A DNA stretch of 64,000 nucleotides, from assembly GCF_032925565.1 (NCBI RefSeq), contig NZ_CP136708.1:1116001-1180000 (forward strand), given 5' to 3'. Of the stretch, positions 33,958-48,314 are shown one piece after another. This DNA comes from Alteromonas sp. CI.11.F.A3 (GTDB lineage Bacteria; Pseudomonadota; Gammaproteobacteria; Enterobacterales; Alteromonadaceae). Every line of letters begins with the position of its first letter. Position 1 is the stretch's first letter. Under the pieces are notes generated by a model. The model saw only the letters and a list, made by a program, of their open reading frames with translations, was not told where the DNA came from and did not search any database. The translations under genes were made by a program, and so were the position numbers.

Positions 33958-35997
33958 ATGAATTTTAGAACTAAGATGAAGAATGGAAGGGCCTCGTTGG
34001 CCGTATTACTTATGTGTTCAATGTCAGGCGCTTATGCATCAGGTTTTCATACTCAAAATGGAGGTGCAACCGGTGGCAATGGCGGTAATGTAGTGCGCGC
34101 AACAACGGGCAAACAGATACATGAAGCTCTATGTAATCGGAACACCAGTGAAACACCGATTATTATCGAAGTAGAAGGCACTATAAATCACGGTAATACC
34201 GAAAAAGTGTCAGGAAGTAGCTGCAATACTGCAGATGATAAAATTGAATTAAAAGACATTAGTAATGTAACCCTCATAGGGGTAGGGCAAGGTGCCTTGT
34301 TTGATGAGCTTGGAATACATATACGGAATTCTACTAATATTATTATACGAAATGTTCATGTTCGAAATGTTAAAAAATCCGGCTCTCCAACGTCTAATGG
34401 GGGCGATGCCATCGGAATTGAAACCGATGTTAGAAACGTGTGGGTAGATCACGTAACATTAGAAGCAAGTGGCGGCGAAAGCGAGGGGTACGACGGTTTA
34501 TTTGACGTAAAGGATAATTCAAAATACATCACGCTTTCGTACAGTCGCTTACTCAATTCTGGCCGAGGGGGTCTAGTAGGCTCAAGTGAATCCCAGGTCA
34601 ACAATGGCCCATTAACGTATCATCACAATATTTTTCAGAATTTAAATTCACGTGTTCCCTTAGTACGTGGGGCAACTGCACATATTTATAATAATCATTA
34701 CGATGGTATTGAATCGTCGGGCATAAATTCACGAGCAGGTGCTGAAGTAAAAGTTGAGAACAACTATTTCGAAGATGCTAAAGACGTGCTAGGAACGTTT
34801 TATACCACGACTGACGGTGATTGGCAGGTGGCAGGTAATGTCTTTGGAAGTGGTGTCACATGGAGTTCGTCTGATGATGATTATCAGCCTGCCGGTCCAA
34901 ACGTAGTTTCTACCACGAGCGTAAGTATTCCGTATTCCTACACCCTTGATAACACTTCTTGCCTCCGTAGTATTTTACAGCAGACTGCTGGCGCGAATAA
35001 AAATCTGCAAGTATCTGATGGTAGTTGTGGGAGCACTGGAGGTGGTGGCGATAACGGTGGTGGCGATAATGGTGGTGGTGATAACGGTGGTGGTGATAAC
35101 GGTGGTGGTGATAACGGTGGTGGTGATAACGGTGGTACCCCTACCGGTGTTAACCTCTCTCTATCGGCTGATGCTGACGGAAGCTCAAAAGCAAGCGGAA
35201 CCAGCTATGGCAATGTAAAAGATGGTGATACCAGCACCTATTGGTCTCCCAATGGTTCAACTGGTCGAATTAGTATTAAAGGGTTAGATACCACGGTTAA
35301 TGCGGTTCGAATTGTAGAGCGAAGCGGCGCTGAAGGACGAGTTACGTCTTGGAGGTTGGTCAATAACGACACAGGCGCACTCATTACGTCAGGAAATACT
35401 ATTCCTGAACCGATAACGTTTTCAGATGTAAACGTAGGCAAACTTAACTTTGTCATTGATTCATCGTCATCAACACCTCAAATAGCTGAATTTGAAACTT
35501 ATTTTGGACTAGACAGTAATGGAGGTGGGAGCGACGATGGTGGTTCGGGTGTCGTTAATGGCACAGTGAATGGAATTTATAGAATTACCCCAGTACACAG
35601 TGGTAGAAGTTTAGATGTAGCCAACTGCGGAACGTCAAGTGGAGTGAATATTCGCCAATGGCAATGGTTAGACAATAACTGTCAAAAGTTTACCATTTCT
35701 CAAGTGGATGGAATTTGGCATCGTATTTCACCACTGAACTCACCGCAGCAAAGTGTAGAGGTAACAAATAGCTCGGCGTCTGCAGGAGAAAATGTTCAAT
35801 TGGGACAATACAGTGGCGCGCAGAATCAAATGTTCCGTTTTCAATCTGCTGGTTCAGGAAAATGGAGAATTATAGCTAGAAACAGCGAGTTGTGCCTTGA
35901 TGTCGCGGGGCAGGGCGGGGGCAATGGCGCTAACATAATTCAGTGGGCTTGCATTGCTCAAGCAGATAATCAAATGTTTGAATTAACTAGGCAGTAA
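33958..35997 (+). CDS. Secreted pectate lyase (PL1) with F5/8-type and ricin-B carbohydrate-binding modules
   Basis: A 679-residue extracellular enzyme. A signal peptide (about 1-28) precedes a PL1 beta-helix lyase (about 30-345), which cuts polygalacturonate by calcium-dependent beta-elimination. VWVDHVTLEA (161-170), YDGLFDVKD and R232 in NSRVPLVRG mark the calcium and catalytic region. A linker of six GGGDN repeats leads to a discoidin-like domain (about 398-520: LSADADGSSKASG...DGDTSTYWSP) and a C-terminal ricin-type beta-trefoil (about 540-679: ITPVHSGRSLDVANC, QWQWLDNNCQKF). It is preceded by the palindromic operator, so probably induced by pectin products. Confidence 0.9.
   Translation: MNFRTKMKNGRASLAVLLMCSMSGAYASGFHTQNGGATGGNGGNVVRATTGKQIHEALCNRNTSETPIIIEVEGTINHGNTEKVSGSSCNTADDKIELKDISNVTLIGVGQGALFDELGIHIRNSTNIIIRNVHVRNVKKSGSPTSNGGDAIGIETDVRNVWVDHVTLEASGGESEGYDGLFDVKDNSKYITLSYSRLLNSGRGGLVGSSESQVNNGPLTYHHNIFQNLNSRVPLVRGATAHIYNNHYDGIESSGINSRAGAEVKVENNYFEDAKDVLGTFYTTTDGDWQVAGNVFGSGVTWSSSDDDYQPAGPNVVSTTSVSIPYSYTLDNTSCLRSILQQTAGANKNLQVSDGSCGSTGGGGDNGGGDNGGGDNGGGDNGGGDNGGGDNGGTPTGVNLSLSADADGSSKASGTSYGNVKDGDTSTYWSPNGSTGRISIKGLDTTVNAVRIVERSGAEGRVTSWRLVNNDTGALITSGNTIPEPITFSDVNVGKLNFVIDSSSSTPQIAEFETYFGLDSNGGGSDDGGSGVVNGTVNGIYRITPVHSGRSLDVANCGTSSGVNIRQWQWLDNNCQKFTISQVDGIWHRISPLNSPQQSVEVTNSSASAGENVQLGQYSGAQNQMFRFQSAGSGKWRIIARNSELCLDVAGQGGGNGANIIQWACIAQADNQMFELTRQ
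35041..35130 (+). repeat. Six 15-bp tandem repeats encoding (GGGDN)6
   Basis: Six nearly identical 15-bp units (GGTGGTGGTGATAAC and single-base variants) form the flexible linker of the pectate lyase. Because the unit is a multiple of three, changes in copy number keep the frame. Confidence 0.95.
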
Positions 35998-36035
35998 ATA
36001 AATGTGCGCCCGATTCTTTGAATGGGCGCCTTAAG

Positions 36036-36049
36036 TGCCACCGGTAGCA
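36036..36049. promoter_or_regulatory. Palindromic operator ahead of the IclR gene
   Basis: TGCCACCGGTAGCA, identical to the site ahead of the pectate lyase, ends 57 bp before the IclR start. A weak hairpin GCGCCC / GGGCGC (36006-36029) after the lyase stop precedes it. Confidence 0.65.
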
Positions 36050-36106
36050 TTTTATTTAATTCATGTTAATATCGACTTCATTGTTCAAATATGGAGCAAA
36101 TAAGCA

Positions 36107-36850
36107 ATGGAGCGATATATCATTCCCAGTGTTTTTCAAGCAATTCAATTGTGCCAATTCATTGCCGAATCTAAGACTGGGCTAACGGCTACTCAAATTG
36201 AAGTGGCGCTTCACTTGCCACGGACATCTGTATTTAGATTATTAAAGACATTATCGAGTGAACGGATAATTGAAAAACGCGGAACTCGCTATTTTTATGG
36301 GAGTAGAGTTTACGAAATTTCTTCGGCTAATTCTCGTGCTCGCTATGTGCAAAGGCTTATCGCACCGTCACTTGCCTCTTTGTTAACATCTTCAGACTGC
36401 AGTGCCATAATATGTGTGCCAGGCGATTATTGTGCATTTGTTATTGATGTCTTGGATGCTCACCCTAGCCGTATTTCAAGTATTCGTCCTGGAAGCAAGC
36501 TTCCACTTTTTCACTCTGCACCCGGTCACATAATGTTAACGCACCACGACCGTTATGAACCCCATAGATACTCTGAAGAGACAACGTTTTTCGATCAAAA
36601 CCTAGCTACAAAACATCGAACTGAAGTATGTACTCGTGGATATGCCATGAGCTATTACAAAAAACGGAATACGACCTTGCTCTCGGTTCCTGTATTTATA
36701 AAGGAAGGAGAGCTTGTTGCAATGCTAGCCGTGGAATTAGAGGGCGAGAAAACCGACTATAAGGCATTACAGGCATGGGGCGAAAAACTGAAGTCCATCG
36801 CTCGCATTCTCGTAACGTATAGTTTTACCGATGAAGAGGAAGTCGTGTGA
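36107..36850 (+). CDS. IclR-family transcriptional regulator
   Basis: A 247-residue regulator with an N-terminal winged helix (about 8-65: AIQLCQFIAESKTGLTATQIEVALHLPRTSVFRLLKTLSSE). A GAF-like effector domain follows (about 85-240), ending VPVFIKEGELVAMLAVEL. IclR members such as KdgR control pectin catabolism in other proteobacteria. Its stop overlaps the GTG of the next lyase gene (GTGA), so it is co-transcribed with its likely target. The same palindrome stands ahead of it. Whether it binds that palindrome is untested; the CCGG centre is more typical of LacI-type operators. Confidence 0.85.
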   Translation: MERYIIPSVFQAIQLCQFIAESKTGLTATQIEVALHLPRTSVFRLLKTLSSERIIEKRGTRYFYGSRVYEISSANSRARYVQRLIAPSLASLLTSSDCSAIICVPGDYCAFVIDVLDAHPSRISSIRPGSKLPLFHSAPGHIMLTHHDRYEPHRYSEETTFFDQNLATKHRTEVCTRGYAMSYYKKRNTTLLSVPVFIKEGELVAMLAVELEGEKTDYKALQAWGEKLKSIARILVTYSFTDEEEVV

Positions 36851-38193
36851 AATATTTAGTATCTGCTCGTTTAATATTATCGTCTGTCATTTTCTTTTAC
36901 GGTTTGTCTAACTGTGAAGCAACACCGCTGGCGTTTGAGGGAGCAAGAGGGTTTGGAAAGTATACCGAAGGCGGAAACCATGGAAGAGTACTGGTCGTTT
37001 CATCATTAAATGATAATGCTAAATCCCCTCAAAAAGGTACGCTTAGGTGGGCAGTAAGACAAGCTTATCCTCGGCTCATCGTGTTTAGCGTTTCAGGTAT
37101 TGTTCACTTGGAAAAGGAGCTTGAAATAAAGCATGGGAACCTGACTATCGCGGGGCATACCTCGCCGAGAGGCATCGTTATTTCGGGAGCTTCCACTAGC
37201 ATAAAGGCTAATCAAGTTATTGTTCGACACCTGCGTTTTCGACCCGGCCACCTCAGCAAAGAGGGTGATGCGCTTACGGTGCGCAATACGAAAGATGTCA
37301 TAATAGACCATTGTTCGCTTAGCTGGTCTAGTGACGAAGTGGGCTCCTTCTATAACAATGAACGTTTCACTCTTCAAAACAGTGTTTTGTCTGAAAGTCT
37401 CAACAATGCGGGGCATCACAAGGGTAATCATGGGTATGGCGGAATATGGGGGGGGAGTCATGCTAGTTTTGTACAAAATTTACTTGCAAATCATACTAGC
37501 CGAAATCCTAGAATTAATGGATGGCGGCTTAAGCCTCCTTATGCTCAGAAAAATGAATTTGTTGACATCAGAAACAATATTATTGCCAATTGGCAGAGTA
37601 ACTCTACCTATGGTGGGGAAAATGGGAAAGTTAACCTGGTGGGTAATGTATACATACCCGGACCAGCCACAAAGAAAGTATGGTTCTATCAAGTATGGGC
37701 CCTTGATAACCCCGCCACGTCGGTTTTTATTGCCGGCAATGTGATGCGTTCTCACCCCCAAATGACATCCAATAATCGTTTAGGTATTGTTGTTAAGAAA
37801 CTTAAGATAAATACCCCAGTTGCACAGCTTATTTTAGACAATGTCTTAGAAGATAAACCGCTTAAAGCAGAGCTTATTGAAGCGTTAAAAGACCCTATTC
37901 TGAGTGCAGAAGAAAGTTGGCAAGCACTAATTATTAAAGAAGACATAGGGGCAAATCAAACCCGATATGGCTTGCAGTTAGATCCTGTCGATAGTCGCAT
38001 TCTCGCTCAGCTCAGAGATGATGCTTATAAGTTTGAAAAGGGTATTATAGATAATGAGTTAGATGTGATGGATTGGGACGTTTATAGTGAATACTTTAAC
38101 CTGAAAACGCCTTTTAATAATGAAAATCACCAGCCTATTAGTGAGACAAGGTGGAAAATCCTTGCTGGAATTACCCCACAGCAGAGTAAATGA
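36847..38193 (+). CDS. Secreted pectate lyase-like protein (PL1_2 type)
   Basis: A 448-residue protein with a signal peptide (about 1-25). FEGARGFGKYTEGGNHG, KGTLRWAVRQ, NLTIAGHTSPRGIVI, VIVRHLRFRPG and VIIDHCSLSWSSDE are the signature of a beta-helix pectate lyase group distinct from the first enzyme (PL1 subfamily 2-like). The C-terminal part from about 320 is variable and of unknown role. It starts with GTG at 36847 inside the IclR stop, with AGAGGAAG ahead of it. It probably acts on periplasmic or surface oligogalacturonates. Confidence 0.82.
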   Translation: MKYLVSARLILSSVIFFYGLSNCEATPLAFEGARGFGKYTEGGNHGRVLVVSSLNDNAKSPQKGTLRWAVRQAYPRLIVFSVSGIVHLEKELEIKHGNLTIAGHTSPRGIVISGASTSIKANQVIVRHLRFRPGHLSKEGDALTVRNTKDVIIDHCSLSWSSDEVGSFYNNERFTLQNSVLSESLNNAGHHKGNHGYGGIWGGSHASFVQNLLANHTSRNPRINGWRLKPPYAQKNEFVDIRNNIIANWQSNSTYGGENGKVNLVGNVYIPGPATKKVWFYQVWALDNPATSVFIAGNVMRSHPQMTSNNRLGIVVKKLKINTPVAQLILDNVLEDKPLKAELIEALKDPILSAEESWQALIIKEDIGANQTRYGLQLDPVDSRILAQLRDDAYKFEKGIIDNELDVMDWDVYSEYFNLKTPFNNENHQPISETRWKILAGITPQQSK

Positions 38194-38234
38194 TTCATAT
38201 ATTAATATTTTGTTAATAAGCGGTTAAATTTTGT

Positions 38235-38275
38235 TTGCACTTCGATTGTTTTGATACATAATGCCACCGGTGGCA
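38235..38275 (+). promoter_or_regulatory. Promoter with overlapping palindromic operator
   Basis: A -35 TTGCAC (38235-38240) and -10 CATAAT (38257-38262), spaced 16 bp, are followed by the perfect palindrome TGCCACCGGTGGCA (38262-38275). It overlaps the end of the -10 and covers the expected start of transcription of the TonB receptor gene. This placement fits repression. Confidence 0.7.
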
Positions 38276-38328
38276 CGGCAAAGGCAGCTTCGGCGCTGTG
38301 TTGATTTTGGCATTTAGGAGTTCAAAAC

Positions 38329-41265
38329 ATGAAAGTGTTTAAATGGACAGCGCTTGCGCTAGCGGTTTCCACAGCCTTTTCAGGCATGGCACAAACCAAT
38401 GAATCGGTTGAAGAAAAAACCGAACAAACCCAAGTTAGTGACACCCCTGATGATATAGAAGTGGTTGAAGTAAAAGGGGTAAAGCAGGCCGATTTGAAAG
38501 CTCGTGATTTAGAGCGGATGAAAAGCGGGTTTAGCTCTGTGATTTCGACGGATGACTTAGGGAACTTTGTTGACCAAAACGTTGCAGAGTCTCTTAGACG
38601 ATTGCCCGGCGTTACGCTTCAGCGCTCGGAAGGTGAAGGGAAGTATGTAACGGTTCGAGGTCTTGGTCCTGGCTTTGTTTCTATCAACATGAATGGGTCA
38701 CAGATGTCTGGCGCTGGCGAAGAGCGTAAAGTAGGCCTTGATGCTCTGCCAGCCGATTTGCTGGGAACCATTGAAGTACTGAAAACGCTGACCCCAGATC
38801 AGAACTTAAATTCGATTGGTGGAACCGTTAACGTAAAAGCAATCTCGGCCTTTGATCGAGGAAAAAATACCCTAAAAATGCGCATTCAAGATGCATACTC
38901 AGATGCTCGTGAAGCTCATTCTCCTAAATTTAGTATCGACGGCACCCAGTTTTTTCTAGAGGGGGCCTTAGGAATAGGCTTTGCACTTTCTCATGAAGAT
39001 CGAAAAAGCCAAATAGACGAAACGCGTCATCATAGTACTAATGAAATGAAGTTTTATACTGCTGATTTAGGTAAAACGGATGAAGAAATTGCAGCGGGAG
39101 AAGAAATTCTCGCCCCTGCTCAACTTGAAGTTCGCCGAGAGATAGCAGGAAGAACCAGACAAGCCGCAGCCCTCAATATTGAGTACAAGCCTTCACCAGA
39201 TGCGTATTACTATGTTAAAGGGACTTACACTCAATTTGAAGATGATGATTTAGCTTTAAGAGAGTTCTACGATTTTCAAGATGCTGGTTCGGTAGGAAAT
39301 AGCGAAATTGTTTACGTAAATAGTCAAACAAAAGAATTTATTCTCAGCGATATTGATGTTTTTCATCAGCATTTTATTCAAGAAAGTGAAAACAAGACGG
39401 CAACCTTCAGCATTGGGGGAGAAAATCGTATTGCCGATAGGTTTGTATTTGATTATGAGTATGCTCAGTCCCGCTCTGACGAGGACTCAAATGGCGACAG
39501 ACGGGTGCAATTTCGGGAGCGGGACCTGATTGTATATGGTCAAGCATCTAGGGATAACATACGCGCAAAAACGCTTAGTCCAGATGAAGCAGCAAGTATC
39601 GCTGGTCTTTCTTATGACCCTAATAACAGCATCTTTGGCACGTCGGGAAGTGGAGACGGCTCTGACCTTTCCAATTATCAATTCGATAATTTGTTTCTCG
39701 AAGGAGGCAACCGCGTTGATGAGATTAAGACCTTCAGTTTAAATTTACGCACCGATGTATTCAACGACTGGTTAGACTTCATTAAGATTGGGGCCGAAGT
39801 TACCGAACGAGACCATGTGCGTGATAAAGACCGGTGGAGTTTCGATCCGTCCGCAGGTGATTGTAGCGATGAGGCGTGTATTGCGGCGGTTAATTCAACC
39901 CTAGCTGATTATGAAAGCAGTATTCCAGCTAACAGCGCCTTTCAATTGCCCTTCGAAAGTCGCAGTGTTGTTGATGACATTGTTAATGCTACACGGCAAA
40001 CGGTCGTGCCCGCGACCAATGGTGAAGTATCAATAGAAAGTACTAAAGGCGACTACAGTATTGTTGAAGATACACAAGCGGTCTACGCAATGGCTGAACT
40101 TCCCCTTGGAGCTGACGCAACGTTAACAACGGGGGGTCGGTGGGCACAAACAGAATTTTCATCTGCGGGTTATATGTCACTTGAAAACGATGACTTTGAG
40201 TTTAATGGGGCAGGAGCGGGTACGTTAGATATTGCTATTCCTCTTCCTGATGCAACCATAAAATACAGTGAGTTTTTCCCAAGTGTGCACGTAAAATGGG
40301 AACCCTCTGAAACGCTGTTAGTTCGGGGAGCGGTATGGACCAGCTTTACACGTCCATCCTTTAAACAAGCCCGAGCATATGCCATTTTTGATAGTGATAT
40401 TGAGCTGTGCCCACCGGGCTCTGACGACTGTGACGATAGCCAAGGTGGCGCTTCGTTACAGCAGCTCAGTCAGTTTGTATTGGGGTCTGACAATGCATTA
40501 GATGTTGGCAATCCCAATCTATTGGCAATGACGTCGATTAATTACGATGCATCAGTTGGATGGTATCCCAGCGAAAACTTATTCATGGAAGCGGCTGTCT
40601 TTTACAAAGACATCGATAATTTTATTGTTGATGTTAACGGCATAGGCATGTCGCTTGATGAGCTTCCCCTTACGTTACCGGTTAACCAAGTGACCGAGTT
40701 TGTCATTCCACAAGATTTATACCTCAACGAAATCAACATTACCGTGAATGGAGATAAAGCCACCGTATTTGGGATAGAGCTTAGCTATAACCAATACTTT
40801 GAAAACGGCTTTTTCTTGCAAAGCAACGCGACTTTGCTAGACAGCGAAGCCACTTTGGATAGCAGTATTCGACAAGGGACTGTGGCCTTACCCGATCAGG
40901 CTGATACTACATTTAACCTTGTTATTGGGTGGGAAAGTAAAACCTTCTCGGCTCGATTAATTGGCAATGTGCGCTCAGAAGTACTTGAGCAAATTGGTTC
41001 TTGTCCAGGTTCTGCTAATTTGAACGATGCTAAAGCGTGCAAGGTTTGGGGTGACCAATACCAAGATGACGTAAAAAGTCTCGACTTTAAACTTCAATAC
41101 GACATCACCGATTATGCCCAAGTGTATTTCGATGCAATAAACCTTACCGATGAAGCCGATTTGCGTTATTTCGAAGGCAATGACCTAAGTGGTGGCAACG
41201 TGCTGTTTCAAAAGGAAGAGTATGGTCGCAGCTATCAGCTTGGCGTAAATATTAAATTCTACTAA
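38329..41265 (+). CDS. TonB-dependent receptor, probably for pectin oligomers
   Basis: A 978-residue outer-membrane receptor. A signal peptide (1-21, ending GMAQ) precedes the plug domain, with NVAESLRRLPGVTLQR, VTVRGLGPGF and GLDALPADLLGTIEVLKTLTPDQN. The large beta-barrel ends in aromatic Y-Q-L-G-V-N-I-K-F-Y, the usual assembly signal. This long TonB receptor type without a carboxypeptidase-like N-terminal domain is common in Alteromonadales polysaccharide loci. AGGAG stands 8 nt before the ATG. Its position between pectin lyases, behind the shared operator, suggests import of oligogalacturonides; that is inference. Confidence 0.88.
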   Translation: MKVFKWTALALAVSTAFSGMAQTNESVEEKTEQTQVSDTPDDIEVVEVKGVKQADLKARDLERMKSGFSSVISTDDLGNFVDQNVAESLRRLPGVTLQRSEGEGKYVTVRGLGPGFVSINMNGSQMSGAGEERKVGLDALPADLLGTIEVLKTLTPDQNLNSIGGTVNVKAISAFDRGKNTLKMRIQDAYSDAREAHSPKFSIDGTQFFLEGALGIGFALSHEDRKSQIDETRHHSTNEMKFYTADLGKTDEEIAAGEEILAPAQLEVRREIAGRTRQAAALNIEYKPSPDAYYYVKGTYTQFEDDDLALREFYDFQDAGSVGNSEIVYVNSQTKEFILSDIDVFHQHFIQESENKTATFSIGGENRIADRFVFDYEYAQSRSDEDSNGDRRVQFRERDLIVYGQASRDNIRAKTLSPDEAASIAGLSYDPNNSIFGTSGSGDGSDLSNYQFDNLFLEGGNRVDEIKTFSLNLRTDVFNDWLDFIKIGAEVTERDHVRDKDRWSFDPSAGDCSDEACIAAVNSTLADYESSIPANSAFQLPFESRSVVDDIVNATRQTVVPATNGEVSIESTKGDYSIVEDTQAVYAMAELPLGADATLTTGGRWAQTEFSSAGYMSLENDDFEFNGAGAGTLDIAIPLPDATIKYSEFFPSVHVKWEPSETLLVRGAVWTSFTRPSFKQARAYAIFDSDIELCPPGSDDCDDSQGGASLQQLSQFVLGSDNALDVGNPNLLAMTSINYDASVGWYPSENLFMEAAVFYKDIDNFIVDVNGIGMSLDELPLTLPVNQVTEFVIPQDLYLNEINITVNGDKATVFGIELSYNQYFENGFFLQSNATLLDSEATLDSSIRQGTVALPDQADTTFNLVIGWESKTFSARLIGNVRSEVLEQIGSCPGSANLNDAKACKVWGDQYQDDVKSLDFKLQYDITDYAQVYFDAINLTDEADLRYFEGNDLSGGNVLFQKEEYGRSYQLGVNIKFY

Positions 41266-41363
41266 TTGTTTGTGCCGGAGTAACCCGGCCTTATCCACAC
41301 TATATCGCTGGAGCGGACAATTTAAGGCGTAGTGCGCCCAGTAGAAAATGGAGATTGAGTACC

Positions 41364-44300
41364 ATGAAACTCACAAAAATAGCAGCCCTTGTGGGCGGTG
41401 TTATTCTTATTAGCGCCTGCGGCGAAAAAAGCAGCACTAATGTTACCCTTCCGCCGGATCCTGCATTAACAGGGGTGTTTGTTGACAGTCCAGTGTCGGG
41501 ACTGGGTTATACCTCTGCATCGGTCCCTAATGACATAACCAATGCCAGTGGAGAGTTTTCTTATTTTAGAGGTGAGCAATTAAGCTTTCATATCGGTGAC
41601 CTCATATTTCCTGAGGCGCCAGCATCCAGTGTTATATCACCTTTAGATTTGTTCGCTACCGACAACCCATTTAATCAATCGGTAGTGAATACCATTCGTT
41701 TGCTTCAGTCGTTAGATATTGATGGCGATGCTAGTAATGGTATTACTCTTAGCGATAGTGCGGCTAATGTGGCAGTGGCCACTCTCGATGACGGACAGTC
41801 ACTTGGGGATTTCTTTAATCAATCAGATACTGATTTTGCTGCCGACGTAGAAGTTTGGCTAGGCTCGGCAGGTGGGGCGAGTAATACCCTTGTTGATAAA
41901 GCAACTGCCGTCACTCACTTCGTCAACTATCTGGAAACTGATCTTGGTACATTGTTTCCCAATACGTTCGATGTGACAAAATTCACTGGTGACATATACG
42001 CCCCTAATACTGAAGGGCGCACGGTTTCTCAGGCCACTTATACCTTTACGCCAAGCGATGAAACAAATTTAGCGGGTGGTTTTGTGCGAGTTCATGGAGA
42101 GGCTAACGTTACTGGTACTTACACGTTTTCATTTGGCAGGAAAGTTATTACGCTAAATTATGACGATCAGACTGAGCACCTTATTTCTCGTGCATACAAT
42201 ACGGTAAACGATGTATACAGCCTATGTCTGGTAGCGGGCGAGGAAGCGACTTCTACCGCGTTGGCATTACATGTTGAAAGTTGTCTGGCCAAAGACGATC
42301 CCTCAGCATATTTGTTCGCTTTCACTTTAGCTCAGGCTGATGCGCAACGGGTGAAGTTAGAGGAGGCCGCGAACGCTATTCAAGCCGCACTAGAAGAGAA
42401 TTTTGATACCGATACCGATACATTTTTTTCGTCTTCCTATAAACGACTAAATGACGAGCCCGACGCCGGTGCGCTTTATTATGTCACCGGTGGTAGCCCA
42501 TTAGTGGACGCCTCTACAGGACAGCTTACCTTGGAAGGCGATCGCTTTAGCATTGGAAATGCCGCTCAAAACCCTGGTGCAAATACATCAGCATCTAATA
42601 CTGTTGGCTCGGGAATTTACAACCTGAGTGAAGGTTTTACTATTAGCTTCGATGTTATTTCTCATAATAGTGGAGGGTCATTCTCGCTTTACGTCGACAA
42701 CAACACTACTGGGCAAGATAACTCTGTCCATGGTGCTGCTTCTAAATTTGTGAGTGAAGGCTTAGCTGACGGCGCAATAGTGGCGGGTGAACGCTTCACC
42801 TACACTTACGAGCCTGGCGACGACATTGGCGGCGGTGATCCCGCAGCCCCTGATGCCAAAATACTTGACAGTACTGTCACTAATAGCTTCTTCCAATTAC
42901 GCACAGACTCAAGTGCAACAATTACCATTGATAATTTAAAAATTGAGACGATAGCAGATGCGGTTGAACCGCCTCCGCCATCAGAACCCGATCCTACAGA
43001 GCCGGACGAACCCGTTATTATTCCAAGCGTATCCCTACCCCTGTCGTTCAGCTTTGCTGGTGAGAGCGAAGATATATTTTCAACTAATTTTGCTGCTATA
43101 GAGAATCAGGCTGGTGAGCAGGTTCCTATGCTTAATATTACCGGCGGCTCGGTAACACAGATTGCAACTGGTATTGAACTGGATGGAGGTCGTTTCACGT
43201 TAGGAAATACAGAGCCCGGTGTAATAAGTTCGCCTGACGATACATCTTCTACCGGTGCGCTTGATTTAAGTCGTCCATACATGGTGGTATTTGATGTTGT
43301 CTCAACGGAAGACACGGAAGGCGATAATAACTTTCAAATTTACGTAGATAATAATACTTCAGGTAGCGCCAACTCGCACTTAGGGAGCGATTCACGCTTC
43401 TTTAATGAACCAGTGGTTGATTTAGTGGCAGGGACTACCATGACCGTAGAAGGGCAGGTAGCGACACCAAATTCATACCTACAGTTTAGAACCGAAAGTG
43501 GCTCTGTTGTCGTCATCGACAATATTCATATTGAGTATATCGAAGCGAATGTTTTGTTAGATGAAACGTTTGAAACCGATATCGACACTTTCTTTAGTGC
43601 AGAGTATAAAGCGACCGATGCCGCTACCACGCCTTTTTATAGTGTTACTGGTGGTGGTTCAGGTATTACCATCACTGACGGCGAATTATCTATGGACAGC
43701 GCTCGATTCACGCTGGGTAATACCACGCCCGAAACCGATACCACAGCTGAAGATACCACCACGACCGGTGTGCTTGATTTAAGCCGTGAATACACAATTA
43801 GCATGGATGTGATTGCCATAGAAGATGCCGAAGCTAATAACAACTTCCAACTCTATGTTGATAACAATACCAGTAGTAGTGGTAAGTCGATACATGGCAG
43901 TGATTCTAAGTTCTACAGCGAACTCATTACCTCCCTCATACCAGGCCAAAGGTTAACGATAGAAGGATTGATTGCAACGCCCACATCGTTTATTCAAATG
44001 CGAACTGAAAGTGGCGGTAAAGTAGTGATTGATAACGTGGTTATCGCCTACGTTGGTGATGCGCCTAACACTAGTCAGTTCAGTTGTGATAGCGAGCCAG
44101 AACTTTATTTTTGTGACGATTTTGCAGAAGGTTCATTGGATAACTTAACCTTGATTGCAGACGATGCAGGCAATAACGGACCTCAAGGCGTATTCGATAT
44201 TCTTGATGATAATGGCAATAACGTTCTTCGATATACCGCTGGTGGTGAAGGCGGGGAAATTTTGTTAGTTAAAGAAACGGCACTAGGTGGATTACCTGAA

Positions 44301-47300
44301 AGCGGCAATTATTATGTCGAAGCCCGTATTCGTCCGCGTCAGAATAGTACTACTCGTAACAAACAACTCTTCTTGATGGGGCGTTATGATAGTGCTGGCA
44401 ACTGGTATGCTGGGGGACTTAATGTACAAAACTCATCGAGTAGCACGCAAGTTGAAGTAGCGATTAGTACCGATGGTAGCATTGCCCGTCCTGTGCAGAA
44501 AAAATCACCTATCTTGCTAGGTGAAAAAGAGGAAACTGATGGCACTTGGTATCGAGTACGTTTTGAAATGGATGGTGAAACCCTAACGGTTTACCTCGAT
44601 GGTGAAAACATGGGTAGTACTGTGGATTCAACCTATAACGCAACGGGTTTAATAGGAATTTTTACCAACAACAGATCTTTTGAAATAGATGACCTAAAAG
44701 TGGGTAACCCGTCGATAAAACCGATTCAGCTTACGCTCGATTATAAAGAGCCTAATTGGGAAACCACTACCAGTAACGATCCGTTGTTTATTTATGTCAC
44801 CGCTGTGCAAGATGATGGTATTACCGAAGATACATTTACCGTAACAACCAGTGATGCCAATGTAGTAACGATTGTGCAAGATGGCCCCCTTGTGACACTT
44901 ACGCCTGCGGCTGAAGGAAATGCGATAGTCACAATCACGTCGGGTTCTGATCCTACTTTAGTAAAGCTCATTACTGTCACTGTCGAGGAAGGATTTACTA
45001 TGCCTACGGCCGCTTATGGTGATTTGTCTGCGGATACGATCCCCAGTGCTGGCAATCAAAATGCGTATGTCGATACGCTACTCACCTTGACGTTTGACGA
45101 TACGCCCACGTTAGGTAGTAGCGGTGAGGTTCGCATTTACAGCGCGGCTGACGATACGCTTGTCGATGTGGTGAACGTAGCTGGTGATACCGACTATATT
45201 GGTTTTAAAGGGCAGGAAAGACAGCGCAAAGTTAATTATCGGCCAGTTTATATTAAGGGGAGTTCAATTGTTATTAAACCTCATACAAATGCACTCGAAT
45301 ACGGTCATTCTTATTATGTGTCTATTGGGGATAACGTCTTAACCAGCGGTACGCTGAATGGTGAAACATTTGTAGGCCTCGGGAAAGATGCTAATTGGGC
45401 CTTTAGTACTCGAGAGGCCGCTCCTTCAGGTAATTCGATTGTCGTTGATGACGACGCTGAGGCCGATTTTCGTACGGTGCAGGGCGCGCTCAACCACATT
45501 ATGCAAAATATACCTGTTGATACACCGTCGACCGTCACGATTAGAGAAGGTGAATATCAAGAAATGCTGTTCTTACGGGGTAGCAACAAGGTTACTTTGC
45601 AAGGAGAGAGCCGTGACAATACCCTTGTTTATTACGACAACTTTGAAAGTTTTAACAGCGGGAGTGGCAAAAGCGAAGCGCCCTCAACAGGTACTCCTTC
45701 AGGCGGAAGAAGTGTATTTCTTATAGAGGGGGTAGATGACTTAACCTTTAATAACTTTACCCTGAAAAATTCACATATTCGAAGTAATGCCTATTCAAAC
45801 CAAGCAGAAACGCTTTATTTTAATAGCGATGCAGGAAGGTTAACTGCGGTGCGCATGAACTTCGTCAGTGAACAAGATACGCTCTTACTTAAAGGCTTCA
45901 GTTGGTTTTATCAATCGTTAGTGGCAGGCAATGTAGATTTCATATGGGGCTATGTTGACACTGCATTGTTTGAAGAGAGTGAAATCCGAACCATTGGTGA
46001 TTCTAAAAATGGGGACCCAGAGGAAGACACCGCTGGCGGATACATTCTGCAGGCAAGAGTTCCTGAGATTACCAACAAAGGTTTTATTTTCTTAAACAAT
46101 CAATTCACCAATGGTCCAGGTCCTATTGGTAATGGTGTACTTGATAACTCTACTTATATTGCACGCAGTGGCGGAAGTGCTAGTTACTTCGATAATGTCA
46201 CCCTTATCAATAATCGACTTGATACTCACATTGCCACAACAGGCTGGGCGGGTGAAGGTGTCCGAGATCAACCAGCACCCAACCCTAGTCCTGCAACATC
46301 GACGGCAGGCTGGCGCGAGTATGGCAGTATGGACATTAACGGTAACCCACTAGATCTTTCAGCTCGGGAATTCGTGTACATTTTGTCTGATAGTGAGGTT
46401 GCTGCGCTTACCAATCGAAGCGATATTTTTTCTCATTATAACAATGGTGAAGGCTGGGCACCGCAAGCACCAGATGTACCTGAGGTGGCGCCGGCACCTA
46501 CCTTGACGGCAAGCGGTTTCGCTCAGTATAGTTTTGATTTAACAGGTGGAGCGGGTGGAACTGTCGTTACCGTAGATAATGGGTTGGATTTAAAGGCCGC
46601 ACTGGAAAATGCAAGTGCTGCGAATACACCGGTAACGGTCTATATTGACGGCACTATTACTGATGCCAACTCAGGAGGCACGGGGGCAGCTATTGAAATA
46701 CGCGATATGAATGATGTGTCGATTATTGGTGTGGCGAACAGAGGTGAATTTGATGGAATCGGTATTTTAATTAAACGTGCCAATAATGTGATTATTCGCA
46801 ACTTACGTATCCATCATGTACTCACAGAAGGTAAAGATGCTATCTCTATTGAAGGTGATAATGACGGCTCAAGCACAAGTAATATTTGGATTGACCATAA
46901 CGAGCTATATAGCACCTTAGCGGTAGATAAAGACTTTTACGATGGGTTGGTTGATAGTAAGCGGGGCGCAAAAAATATCACTATTTCGTACAATTACCTT
47001 CATGATCACTGGAAGGCATCCTTACATGGTCATACCGAAACTGATACTGCAAGTGCAAACACTGAGCGCTTAATTACCTTCCATCACAACCGTTTTGAGA
47101 ATATTGAATCTCGTCTGCCGCTATTTCGCTATGGCCACGGGCATTTGTATAATAATTATTATAACCAAATATCTTCTACCGCCATAAATTCGCGAATTGG
47201 TGCTGAATTACAAGTTGAGAACAATGTATTTGAGAATACCAAAAACCCAATAGTATCTTTCTACTCCGAAGTTATTGGATATTGGAACACGTCGGGCAAT

Positions 47301-47501
47301 ATATTTGGTGAAGGGGTTACGTGGTCTGAGCCTGCAGAAGGGGATGTTGTCGCTGGGCCAGATGCAACTCCCACATCAAGTTATGAAGTACCTTACGACT
47401 ATGAACTTGATAACGCAGATGTTGTGAAGCAGCGTGTTATTAACCACGCTGGCGTAGGTAAGATTACCCAAGATGCGAGTGCTATCCCAGACATAAACTA
47501 A
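41364..47501 (+). CDS. Giant lipoprotein: pectin methylesterase (CE8) plus pectate lyase (PL1)
   Basis: A 2045-residue surface lipoprotein; lipobox ISAC with C19. After an N-terminal module (about 38-330, PVSGLGYTS...GEQLSFHIGDL) come three related repeats of unknown family (about 347-533, 571-727, 732-898), each with YVDNNT and FxxGN signatures. Then follow a laminin-G/concanavalin-like domain (about 910-1115), two Ig-like domains (about 1120-1350), a CE8 pectinesterase (about 1356-1700: FRTVQGALNHI, SEQDTLLLKG, GNVDFIWGYVD with the catalytic Asp), and a PL1 lyase (about 1723-2045: NIWIDHNELY, ESRLPLFRYG). De-esterification followed by cleavage could occur on one chain. ATG 41364 is preferred over TTG 41355, with GGAG 10 nt upstream. 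Confidence 0.88.
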   Translation: MKLTKIAALVGGVILISACGEKSSTNVTLPPDPALTGVFVDSPVSGLGYTSASVPNDITNASGEFSYFRGEQLSFHIGDLIFPEAPASSVISPLDLFATDNPFNQSVVNTIRLLQSLDIDGDASNGITLSDSAANVAVATLDDGQSLGDFFNQSDTDFAADVEVWLGSAGGASNTLVDKATAVTHFVNYLETDLGTLFPNTFDVTKFTGDIYAPNTEGRTVSQATYTFTPSDETNLAGGFVRVHGEANVTGTYTFSFGRKVITLNYDDQTEHLISRAYNTVNDVYSLCLVAGEEATSTALALHVESCLAKDDPSAYLFAFTLAQADAQRVKLEEAANAIQAALEENFDTDTDTFFSSSYKRLNDEPDAGALYYVTGGSPLVDASTGQLTLEGDRFSIGNAAQNPGANTSASNTVGSGIYNLSEGFTISFDVISHNSGGSFSLYVDNNTTGQDNSVHGAASKFVSEGLADGAIVAGERFTYTYEPGDDIGGGDPAAPDAKILDSTVTNSFFQLRTDSSATITIDNLKIETIADAVEPPPPSEPDPTEPDEPVIIPSVSLPLSFSFAGESEDIFSTNFAAIENQAGEQVPMLNITGGSVTQIATGIELDGGRFTLGNTEPGVISSPDDTSSTGALDLSRPYMVVFDVVSTEDTEGDNNFQIYVDNNTSGSANSHLGSDSRFFNEPVVDLVAGTTMTVEGQVATPNSYLQFRTESGSVVVIDNIHIEYIEANVLLDETFETDIDTFFSAEYKATDAATTPFYSVTGGGSGITITDGELSMDSARFTLGNTTPETDTTAEDTTTTGVLDLSREYTISMDVIAIEDAEANNNFQLYVDNNTSSSGKSIHGSDSKFYSELITSLIPGQRLTIEGLIATPTSFIQMRTESGGKVVIDNVVIAYVGDAPNTSQFSCDSEPELYFCDDFAEGSLDNLTLIADDAGNNGPQGVFDILDDNGNNVLRYTAGGEGGEILLVKETALGGLPESGNYYVEARIRPRQNSTTRNKQLFLMGRYDSAGNWYAGGLNVQNSSSSTQVEVAISTDGSIARPVQKKSPILLGEKEETDGTWYRVRFEMDGETLTVYLDGENMGSTVDSTYNATGLIGIFTNNRSFEIDDLKVGNPSIKPIQLTLDYKEPNWETTTSNDPLFIYVTAVQDDGITEDTFTVTTSDANVVTIVQDGPLVTLTPAAEGNAIVTITSGSDPTLVKLITVTVEEGFTMPTAAYGDLSADTIPSAGNQNAYVDTLLTLTFDDTPTLGSSGEVRIYSAADDTLVDVVNVAGDTDYIGFKGQERQRKVNYRPVYIKGSSIVIKPHTNALEYGHSYYVSIGDNVLTSGTLNGETFVGLGKDANWAFSTREAAPSGNSIVVDDDAEADFRTVQGALNHIMQNIPVDTPSTVTIREGEYQEMLFLRGSNKVTLQGESRDNTLVYYDNFESFNSGSGKSEAPSTGTPSGGRSVFLIEGVDDLTFNNFTLKNSHIRSNAYSNQAETLYFNSDAGRLTAVRMNFVSEQDTLLLKGFSWFYQSLVAGNVDFIWGYVDTALFEESEIRTIGDSKNGDPEEDTAGGYILQARVPEITNKGFIFLNNQFTNGPGPIGNGVLDNSTYIARSGGSASYFDNVTLINNRLDTHIATTGWAGEGVRDQPAPNPSPATSTAGWREYGSMDINGNPLDLSAREFVYILSDSEVAALTNRSDIFSHYNNGEGWAPQAPDVPEVAPAPTLTASGFAQYSFDLTGGAGGTVVTVDNGLDLKAALENASAANTPVTVYIDGTITDANSGGTGAAIEIRDMNDVSIIGVANRGEFDGIGILIKRANNVIIRNLRIHHVLTEGKDAISIEGDNDGSSTSNIWIDHNELYSTLAVDKDFYDGLVDSKRGAKNITISYNYLHDHWKASLHGHTETDTASANTERLITFHHNRFENIESRLPLFRYGHGHLYNNYYNQISSTAINSRIGAELQVENNVFENTKNPIVSFYSEVIGYWNTSGNIFGEGVTWSEPAEGDVVAGPDATPTSSYEVPYDYELDNADVVKQRVINHAGVGKITQDASAIPDIN

Positions 47502-47622: not shown

Positions 47623-47847
47623 TCACTCCTCCTCTTTCGAATACTGAAATACCTCATTAAACGGCTTATTAAATACCAAAGCAATTTTGAAGGCGACTTC
47701 AAGGGAAGGGGAGTATTTTCCTTTTTCAATTGCCATGATAGTTTGTCGCGTAACGCCCACCTTTGACGCTAGTTCTTGTTGAGTCATTTCATTTGAGAGA
47801 AAGCGTAAGGTTCTTATATTGTTGATAATTGTGTATTTATCAACCAT
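47623..47847 (-). CDS. Small XRE/HTH_3 transcriptional regulator
   Basis: A 74-residue stand-alone Cro/CI-type helix-turn-helix protein (TQQELASKVGVTRQTIMAIEKGKYSPSLEVAFKIALVF), of the YozG/YgzD-like type usually paired with a membrane protein. ATG 47847 overlaps the stop of the upstream membrane gene (TAATG), so translation is coupled. A TTG 18 bp further upstream is less likely. It probably autoregulates the pair. Confidence 0.85.
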   Translation of the reverse strand: MVDKYTIINNIRTLRFLSNEMTQQELASKVGVTRQTIMAIEKGKYSPSLEVAFKIALVFNKPFNEVFQYSKEEE

Positions 47848-48314
47848 TAACTTTCTTTCCGGCAATAGTAAATCTCAGTACCGAAGCGAGTTACTTCCGA
47901 TAGCCAAAAAATAAGGACTAATTTTAGCTCGATAGGTGCAAGAGCATAATTGGTGTAGTTATTTTGCGCTTCAAAGTCGATGTTACTGTTGATCATGTGC
48001 TGTATCACGCAGCTCACGATACCAACTGACAGTACCCAGTAACCCGCATTGTTCGCGGTAAGTCGATGAAAACGCTCTCGTTCATCCTCAGGTGTGTTGG
48101 CGTCTTCTTGCTGGCTCATGGCTAACGCAATATGCAAAGCTACCTCTAAGATAATGAAGGCAATAGTAATTCGCACGATGAGGGCGGTAGTGTCACTAGG
48201 GCTAATATTTGGTTGCAAAAATATAAGTGCATATACGCTATCTCCATAAATAGAGGCGATCACCGCAGATACTAACAAAGACACCCACAAACTTTTCTCT
48301 CTGAACGAAATCAT
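47847..48314 (-). CDS. Four-TM membrane protein paired with an XRE regulator
   Basis: A 155-residue membrane protein with four hydrophobic segments (about 10-30, 42-65, 90-110, 128-146) and a charged cytoplasmic loop (SQQEDANTPEDERERFHRL, about 68-86). I do not recognise a named family, but small membrane proteins of this form next to compact XRE regulators are widespread. First gene of the pair. Confidence 0.7.
   Translation of the reverse strand: MISFREKSLWVSLLVSAVIASIYGDSVYALIFLQPNISPSDTTALIVRITIAFIILEVALHIALAMSQQEDANTPEDERERFHRLTANNAGYWVLSVGIVSCVIQHMINSNIDFEAQNNYTNYALAPIELKLVLIFWLSEVTRFGTEIYYCRKES

What the first reader, a model, noticed from the sequence alone, without database searches (positions are those of the whole stretch)
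45430..47501. Pectin esterase and pectate lyase fused in one surface lipoprotein
The C-terminal third of the 2045-residue lipoprotein holds a CE8 domain (about 1356-1700) directly followed by a PL1 domain (about 1723-2045). Pectate lyases need de-esterified substrate, so the order suggests processive esterase-to-lyase action on a chain tethered to the cell surface. The next gene upstream is the TonB receptor, which could take up the products at once.
Basis: partly seen in the sequence, partly recalled or inferred. Interest (0 to 1): 0.75.

Follow-up and report, generated by a model that had tools for sequence, protein, structure and literature searches.

The report
Tethered two-step pectin-degrading enzyme
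A marine bacterium carries one large membrane-anchored protein with two enzymes, one that probably strips methyl groups from pectin and one that cuts the stripped chain; such proteins are already described in related bacteria, and relatives carry the two enzymes in either order or as separate genes.

Summary
The 2045-residue lipoprotein (41364-47501, +) ends in a CE8 pectin methylesterase domain (residues 1353-1700) and a PL1 pectate lyase domain (1716-2037), about 15 residues apart; a TonB receptor gene lies directly upstream. Catalytic residues are intact in both. The arrangement is not new: a lipobox-bearing PL1+CE8 protein with the same functional proposal was published for Catenovulum sp. 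CCB-QB4 in 2021 (PMC7953866), and PelA/PelB of Pseudoalteromonas haloplanktis ANT/505 (recalled; paper not held) looks closest. Five relatives lack one domain, and in two genomes the enzymes are separate neighbouring lipoprotein genes. This favours simple co-location on one chain over directional hand-off. Surface exposure, activity and uptake by this receptor are inferred. Possibly new: the CE8 clade lacks the substrate-site tryptophan of the GRPW motif (0 of 204), and a 160-185-residue beta-sandwich repeat without a Pfam family, three copies here, is a candidate pectin-binding module.

The parts
41364..47501 (+). whole gene: 2045-aa multidomain lipoprotein (PelA-type)
41364..41420 (+). signal peptide and lipobox LISA-C19, Gly at +2
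   Evidence: lipobox pattern in 48 of 56 CE8-PL1 proteins that start with Met, the window's included
41454..42371 (+). N-terminal region, residues 31-336, no Pfam family
42402..42950 (+). repeat module 1, residues 347-529
43053..43538 (+). repeat module 2, residues 564-725
43569..44051 (+). repeat module 3, residues 736-896; predicted beta-sandwich, candidate carbohydrate-binding module
44100..44711 (+). concanavalin A/laminin-G-like module, residues 913-1116
   Evidence: PF06439 29.1 bits, PF13385 29.1 bits
44712..45383 (+). Ig-like region, residues about 1117-1340 (weak Big_5, below its cut-off)
45420..46463 (+). CE8 pectin methylesterase domain, residues 1353-1700; Q1480, Q1504, D1505, D1525, R1601 conserved
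46464..46508 (+). interdomain linker, residues 1701-1715; model confidence low from 1705 to 1729
46509..47474 (+). PL1 pectate lyase domain, residues 1716-2037; D1844, D1860, D1864, K1884, R1917, R1922
38329..41265 (+). TonB-dependent receptor (TIGR01782), directly upstream
36847..38193 (+). pectate lyase similar to solved pectate lyase 9buj (PfPL1)
36107..36850 (+). IclR-type regulator
33958..35997 (+). PL1 plus ricin-B-lectin (CBM13-like), PelB-type

Best explanation
This is the Alteromonas version of a known kind of marine multimodular pectinase (PelA type). Exported and lipidated at Cys19, it is anchored in the outer membrane. Its N-terminal beta-sandwich repeats and LamG-like module probably hold pectin. 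The CE8 domain removes methyl esters from homogalacturonan with its Asp pair and Arg. The Ca-dependent PL1 domain cleaves the exposed galacturonate stretches by beta-elimination, and the TonB receptor encoded next door imports the products. The two activities are coupled by sitting on the same chain and the same substrate, not by directional hand-off set by domain order. Shown here: domains, residues, lipobox pattern, neighbourhood, order swaps. Inferred: export route, surface exposure, pectin binding, activities, uptake, proximity coupling.
For: Pfam and fold matches to solved CE8 and PL1 enzymes. Both CE8 Asp, both Gln and the Arg are invariant in 204 of 204 CE8 domains aligned; D1844, D1860, K1884, R1917, R1922 in 204 of 204 PL1 domains aligned; profile alignment puts R1601 on the Arg of LGRPW. 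The receptor gene is directly upstream, same strand, in 24 of 28 loci read. Order is reversed in 144 of 212, including 28 proteins that share our N-terminal region (26 with a lipobox) and carry a PL1 of median 48% identity to ours. Single-domain absences; unfused neighbouring lipoprotein genes in two genomes; low-confidence linker and pTM 0.54. Same reading in print for a relative.
Against: No activity measured for either domain. CE8 is divergent (43.9 bits) and lacks the GRPW tryptophan, so activity or specificity could differ. A lipobox does not show the outer face. Only 23 of 114 Met-starting proteins of the commonest reversed type show a lipobox pattern, so membrane anchoring is not general to the fusion. 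Hehemann et al. 2017 (recalled) reported the related PelA as secreted, which would weaken permanent tethering. In the CE8-PL1 arrangement the linker is short (median 17, range 14-81), which leaves room for real coupling in this branch.
Confidence: 0.8

Rival explanations
1. Directional processive coupling: CE8 de-esterifies a run of residues and passes that chain segment directly to PL1, so the CE8-then-PL1 order and short linker are functionally needed.
For: Linker median 17 residues in 57 CE8-PL1 proteins; PL1 of this branch is conserved (median 71% identity over 54); both active sites intact.
Against: Reverse order in 144 of 212, with 358-792 residues between the two; PL1-CE8 label needs at least two changes on well-supported branches of the tree; PL1-less and CE8-less relatives; by coordinates, a repeat module lies between CE8 and PL1 in Tahibacter loci L034 and L035; linker poorly predicted.
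Confidence: 0.1
2. The CE8 domain is no longer a pectin methylesterase of the usual kind: it is an esterase with altered specificity or mainly a binding module, and the lyase does the work on already de-esterified pectin.
For: Weak Pfam score; the Trp two residues after the Arg, whose PmeC5 counterpart Trp328 was scored as substrate-binding by docking (PMC12109409, passages), is P, G, S, A or a gap in all 204; a separate PemA-like PME with GRPW lies elsewhere in the genome.
Confidence: 0.1
3. The protein is a periplasmic or shed outer-membrane lipoprotein acting on imported oligomers or as a free exoenzyme, not a cell-surface enzyme.
For: Lipobox alone does not fix the face; Hehemann et al. 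2017 reported secretion of the related PelA (recalled).
Against: A PL1 pectate lyase (endo-acting as a rule, recalled) and several probable binding modules suit long polymer outside the cell; the genome has a type II secretin GspD, a known route for surface lipoproteins such as PulA (recalled).
Confidence: 0.2

Closest known systems
Pd5_PL1 of Catenovulum sp. CCB-QB4 (PMC7953866, passages read)
   Same: PL1 plus CE8 in one protein with a lipobox; the authors propose cell-surface location with de-esterification plus depolymerisation
   Different: Carried on a plasmid. P0166, a plasmid-borne 2066-aa protein named as Saccharobesus litoralis, is probably this protein (strain link recalled); it is 53% identical to ours over the two-domain fragment and has repeat modules on both sides of the enzyme domains
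PelA and PelB of Pseudoalteromonas haloplanktis ANT/505 (Truong 2001; Hehemann 2017; content recalled, papers not held)
   Same: Large PL1 plus CE8 enzyme (PelA) and a PL1 plus two CBM13 enzyme (PelB); the window carries both types about 5 kb apart. Pseudoalteromonas proteins are 64-66% identical to ours over the fragment
   Different: Reported as secreted into the medium (recalled); domain order in PelA not checked here
PmeC5 of Butyrivibrio fibrisolvens (PMC12109409, abstract and passages read)
   Same: 2089-aa secreted protein with a CE8 domain and a pectate lyase domain
   Different: Lyase is PL9; a rumen bacterium; CE8 retains Trp328
PL10-CE8 of Maribacter lineage 3 (PMC8072126, passages read)
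   Same: Methylesterase fused to a pectate lyase within a pectin-related PUL of a marine bacterium
   Different: Lyase family PL10; a flavobacterium
PL1-LamG-CE8 proteins, some named as Massilia, Duganella or Cellvibrio
   Same: Same CE8 clade (median 53-54% identity) with the same LamG-like partner; 28 also share the N-terminal region, 26 of these with a lipobox
   Different: PL1 at the other end; PL1 identity to ours median 48% in those 28 and 29% in the other 116; no repeat modules in 144 of 144

Membership tests
CE8 pectin methylesterase (PF01095) | profile match over the curated cut-off | tested here: met
   43.9 bits against cut-off 27, profile positions 2-243 of 298
CE8 pectin methylesterase (PF01095) | catalytic Asp pair and Arg (Asp231, Asp253, Arg326 in PmeC5) | tested here: met
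   D1505, D1525, R1601 in 204 of 204; register by profile alignment; residues from PMC12109409
CE8 pectin methylesterase (PF01095) | Trp two residues after the Arg (GRPW), substrate site; not a catalytic residue | tested here: not met
   0 of 204, three of them a gap at that column; GRPW in 13 of 13 distinct standalone-type PME sequences compared, two of which overlap as pieces of one gene, and in L092, which the first filter had dropped
CE8 pectin methylesterase (PF01095) | right-handed beta-helix like solved PMEs | tested here: met
CE8 pectin methylesterase (PF01095) | releases methanol from pectin | not testable with these tools
   needs an assay
PL1 pectate lyase (PF00544) | profile match over the curated cut-off | tested here: met
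   116.7 bits against cut-off 24; 7xks E 2e-85
PL1 pectate lyase (PF00544) | RxPxxR catalytic Arg, Lys and Ca-binding Asp residues (roles recalled) | tested here: met
   R1917, R1922, K1884, D1844, D1860 in 204 of 204; D1864 in 169 of 204
PL1 pectate lyase (PF00544) | Ca-dependent beta-elimination on polygalacturonate | not testable with these tools
   needs an assay
PelA-type marine multimodular pectinase | CE8 and PL1 in one exported protein beside a TonB receptor | tested here: met
   domains, signal, receptor
surface-exposed lipoprotein | lipobox without Asp at +2 | tested here: met
   LISAC-G; Gly at +2 in 45 of 47 relatives with a lipobox pattern
surface-exposed lipoprotein | exposed on the outer face | not testable with these tools
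   no tool predicts the face; type II secretin present
known CBM family for the repeat module | profile match to a catalogued CBM family | tested here: inconclusive

The most novel reading that the evidence does not exclude
The same Trp-less CE8 clade with its LamG-like partner has been combined with pectate lyases more than once and on opposite sides, so selection acts on putting the two activities on one chain whatever the geometry. The CE8 clade has a reshaped sugar-binding subsite (GRPW to ARSxG, DFIFG to DFIWG), and the repeat is an uncatalogued homogalacturonan-binding family.
Probability: 0.35. Interest if true: 0.4.

Novelty: already known. Interest (0 to 1): 0.2.

Why it matters
It confirms a published design for marine pectin use in another genome and corrects an inference: domain order does not set the reaction order. 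The natural set of fused, order-swapped, one-domain and split versions is ready material for testing what fusing consecutive enzymes buys a bacterium. The Trp-less CE8 clade and the repeat module are the parts that specialists might not yet have examined.

Tried and rejected
Chance or mis-annotation of the CE8 domain: rejected, because although Pfam scores it weakly, profile and fold comparisons agree. Loss of catalytic residues: rejected; the MAFFT alignment with the single canonical PME put the Arg of GRPW about two columns off, so a profile-profile alignment was used for the register. A unique fusion: rejected. Split genes as an assembly frameshift: rejected for L032 and L033, since the first gene has its own stop and each gene its own start and lipoprotein signal. 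Recent acquisition by base composition: no sign (gene 44.7% G+C, window 44.0%); not tested further. A promoter between receptor and enzyme genes: none found by the simple scan of 41100-41500, which proves nothing.

Limits of the counts. Both homologue searches scored only the roughly 8000 candidates sharing most words, and the lists were cut to the best 120 of 936 and 120 of 401, giving 211 distinct proteins plus the window's; the 57:144 ratio describes that list, not nature. Of the 57, P0205 and P0004 carry only part of PL1, and P0002, P0003 and P0006 only part of CE8. Three of 207 CE8 hits and two of 206 PL1 hits were dropped from the residue counts by length filters of 300 and 230 residues. 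The lipobox counts come from a simple pattern in residues 9-45; of the 8 Met-starting CE8-PL1 proteins without it, 2 have a lipobox-like cysteine just before that stretch and 6 look N-terminally incomplete. The canonical PME set was chosen by score and motif from 13 of the loci and the own genome; shorter, partial PF01095 matches (L102-L104, L106, L107, L116, L117, among others) showed neither the QDT nor the DFI motif and are not counted. The tree used 88 of 204 CE8 domains, partly drawn at random; three long branches, among them P0004, are uncertainly placed, and some label changes are absences of PL1, not swaps. Neighbourhoods were read for 28 of 80 fetched loci; L009 and L010 gave the same coordinates and are near copies. 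Repeat-module fold matches are middling and show no function. One search stopped part-way with an error in my script; its printed lines are used, and the rest was run again.
Full report
What is there. The window lies in a 4.66 Mb single-contig genome; the closest named homologues are from Alteromonas. The gene at 41364-47501 (+) encodes 2045 residues starting MKLTKIAALVGGVILISAC-GEKSS, a lipoprotein signal with Cys19 and Gly at +2. Layout by profiles built here: an N-terminal region (31-336), three copies of a 160-185-residue repeat (347-529, 564-725, 736-896), a LamG-like module (913-1116), an Ig-like region (weak), CE8 (1353-1700) and PL1 (1716-2037). Pfam gives 43.9 bits for Pectinesterase and 116.7 bits for Pectate_lyase_4, both above cut-off.

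Active sites. In the 204 CE8 domains aligned, Q1480, Q1504, D1505, D1525 and R1601 are invariant. A profile-profile alignment with 13 distinct canonical PME sequences (two are overlapping pieces of one gene) gives 99.9% probability, E 1.1e-33, and places R1601 on the Arg of LGRPW. The catalytic triad of Arg and two Asp is called strictly conserved among PMEs in PMC12109409 (passages). Trp328 of PmeC5, two residues after its catalytic Arg326, is listed there among substrate-binding residues scored by docking. That Trp is missing from all 204: the slot holds P 117, G 40, S 24, A 20, gap 3, and no GRPW occurs in any of the 204, while all 13 canonical sequences have it. In all 204 DFIFG reads DFIWG. 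In a first-look control, nine further multidomain loci of the family (L099, L100, L101, L105, L108, L112-L115) also show SEQDT, DFIWG and ARSxG and no GRPW. In the 204 PL1 domains aligned, D1844, D1860, K1884, R1917 and R1922 are invariant and D1864 is kept in 169; their roles are recalled from PelC and Bacillus Pel work.

Domain order. Of 212 proteins (211 listed homologues plus the window's), 57 have CE8 before PL1 and 144 have PL1 before CE8; the other 11 hold one of the two. The reversed ones fall into two sets. Twenty-eight share our N-terminal region, 26 of 28 have a lipobox pattern, and their PL1 is 45-50% identical to ours; several are named as Cellvibrio. The other 116, several named as Massilia or Duganella, have a more distant PL1 (median 29%) and a lipobox pattern in only 23 of 114 that start with Met. 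CE8 identity to ours is about 53-54% in both sets. Between the domains lie 358-792 residues in the reversed type and a median of 17 (14-81) in ours. LamG is present in 48 of the 57 and 144 of 144 and stands before CE8 in both. On a CE8 tree of 88 domains, well-supported branches force at least four changes of the CE8-PL1 label and at least two of the PL1-CE8 label; some of the four are absences of PL1 rather than swaps. Four CE8-PL1 proteins (P0167, P0168, P0170, P0171; two named as Cellvibrio MAG proteins) lie inside the PL1-CE8 side, which is the clearest swap. P0210 and P0211 lack PL1, and P0188, P0199 and P0204 lack CE8, while keeping the N-terminal region and repeats. In Alteromonadaceae bacterium Bs31 (L032) and a Microbulbifer MAG (L033) the two enzymes are separate neighbouring genes, each with its own lipoprotein signal. 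In Tahibacter (L034, L035), by coordinates, a repeat module lies between the domains. Together this argues for co-location on one chain and against a fixed geometry. It does not exclude coupling in this branch.

Neighbourhood. The window holds, in order and on one strand: a PL1 with ricin-B-lectin repeats, an IclR regulator, a pectate lyase close to solved 9buj (E 1.7e-113), the TonB receptor and this gene. Of 28 related loci read, 24 have the receptor directly upstream on the same strand, among them 23 of the 25 fused CE8-PL1 loci and one PL1-only locus (L030); L032-L035 do not. The three PL1 matches of the genome all lie in this cluster. A second locus at 2.04 Mb carries a PemA-like PME with GRPW beside a polygalacturonase-like gene, both below the NCBIfam cut-offs. 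The genome has a GspD secretin. In a sample of 147 genomes of the family, 22 have any PF01095 match, so the trait is patchy.

What is known. PMC12109409 (abstract and passages) describes a protein with CE8 and PL9, and PMC8072126 (passages) a PL10-CE8. PMC12021255 (passages) reports pectin PULs in Alteromonas macleodii that are upregulated on an alginate and pectin mix. Hehemann et al. 2017 on P. haloplanktis ANT/505 is cited by PMC6262041 (passages) for horizontal gain of the pectin pathway; what I say of PelA and PelB is recalled, because the paper is not held. Hobbs et al. on a marine pectin pathway is also not held and was seen only as a citation. Paper searches used. They were not aimed at the missing GRPW Trp or at the repeat module, so I make no claim that either is absent from print.

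Verdict. Observation confirmed; composition known; the order argument is not supported. Interest 0.2. The Trp-less CE8 clade, the two domain orders within one protein family and the repeat module are the residual points of interest.

Noticed in passing
45420-46463 and 204 aligned CE8 domains: The clade replaces LGRPW by ARSxG (A 203, R 204, S 199, G 204 of 204) and DFIFG by DFIWG (204 of 204); no Trp in the GRPW slot.
   Followed up: partly
42402-44051: Three copies of a beta-sandwich repeat with no Pfam family; relatives carry up to seven copies, on both sides of the enzymes.
   Followed up: partly
L032:8447-13554 and L033:8447-13533: CE8 and PL1 as separate adjacent lipoprotein genes, the unfused counterpart of this protein.
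   Followed up: yes
33958-41265: Upstream genes on the same strand: PL1-ricin-B lectin, IclR regulator, pectate lyase like 9buj, TonB receptor; with the fusion gene a five-gene pectin cluster.
   Followed up: partly
L001:1411-3844: A second pectin locus in the same genome: PemA-like PME next to a polygalacturonase-like gene.
   Followed up: partly
P0135: A Catenovulum agarivorans protein of 2659 aa with two LamG-CE8 units before PL1.
   Followed up: no
P0142: A 69% identical protein labelled Flavobacterium sp. W21_SRS_FM6 groups in the tree with unnamed and, one step out, Pseudoalteromonas proteins; possibly a mislabelled genome or a transfer.
   Followed up: no
L018:6276-13174: The Paraglaciecola MAG copy of the gene lies in two overlapping frames upstream of the enzyme domains.
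   Followed up: no
47847-48314 (-): A 155-residue ORF downstream with no Pfam match.
   Followed up: no
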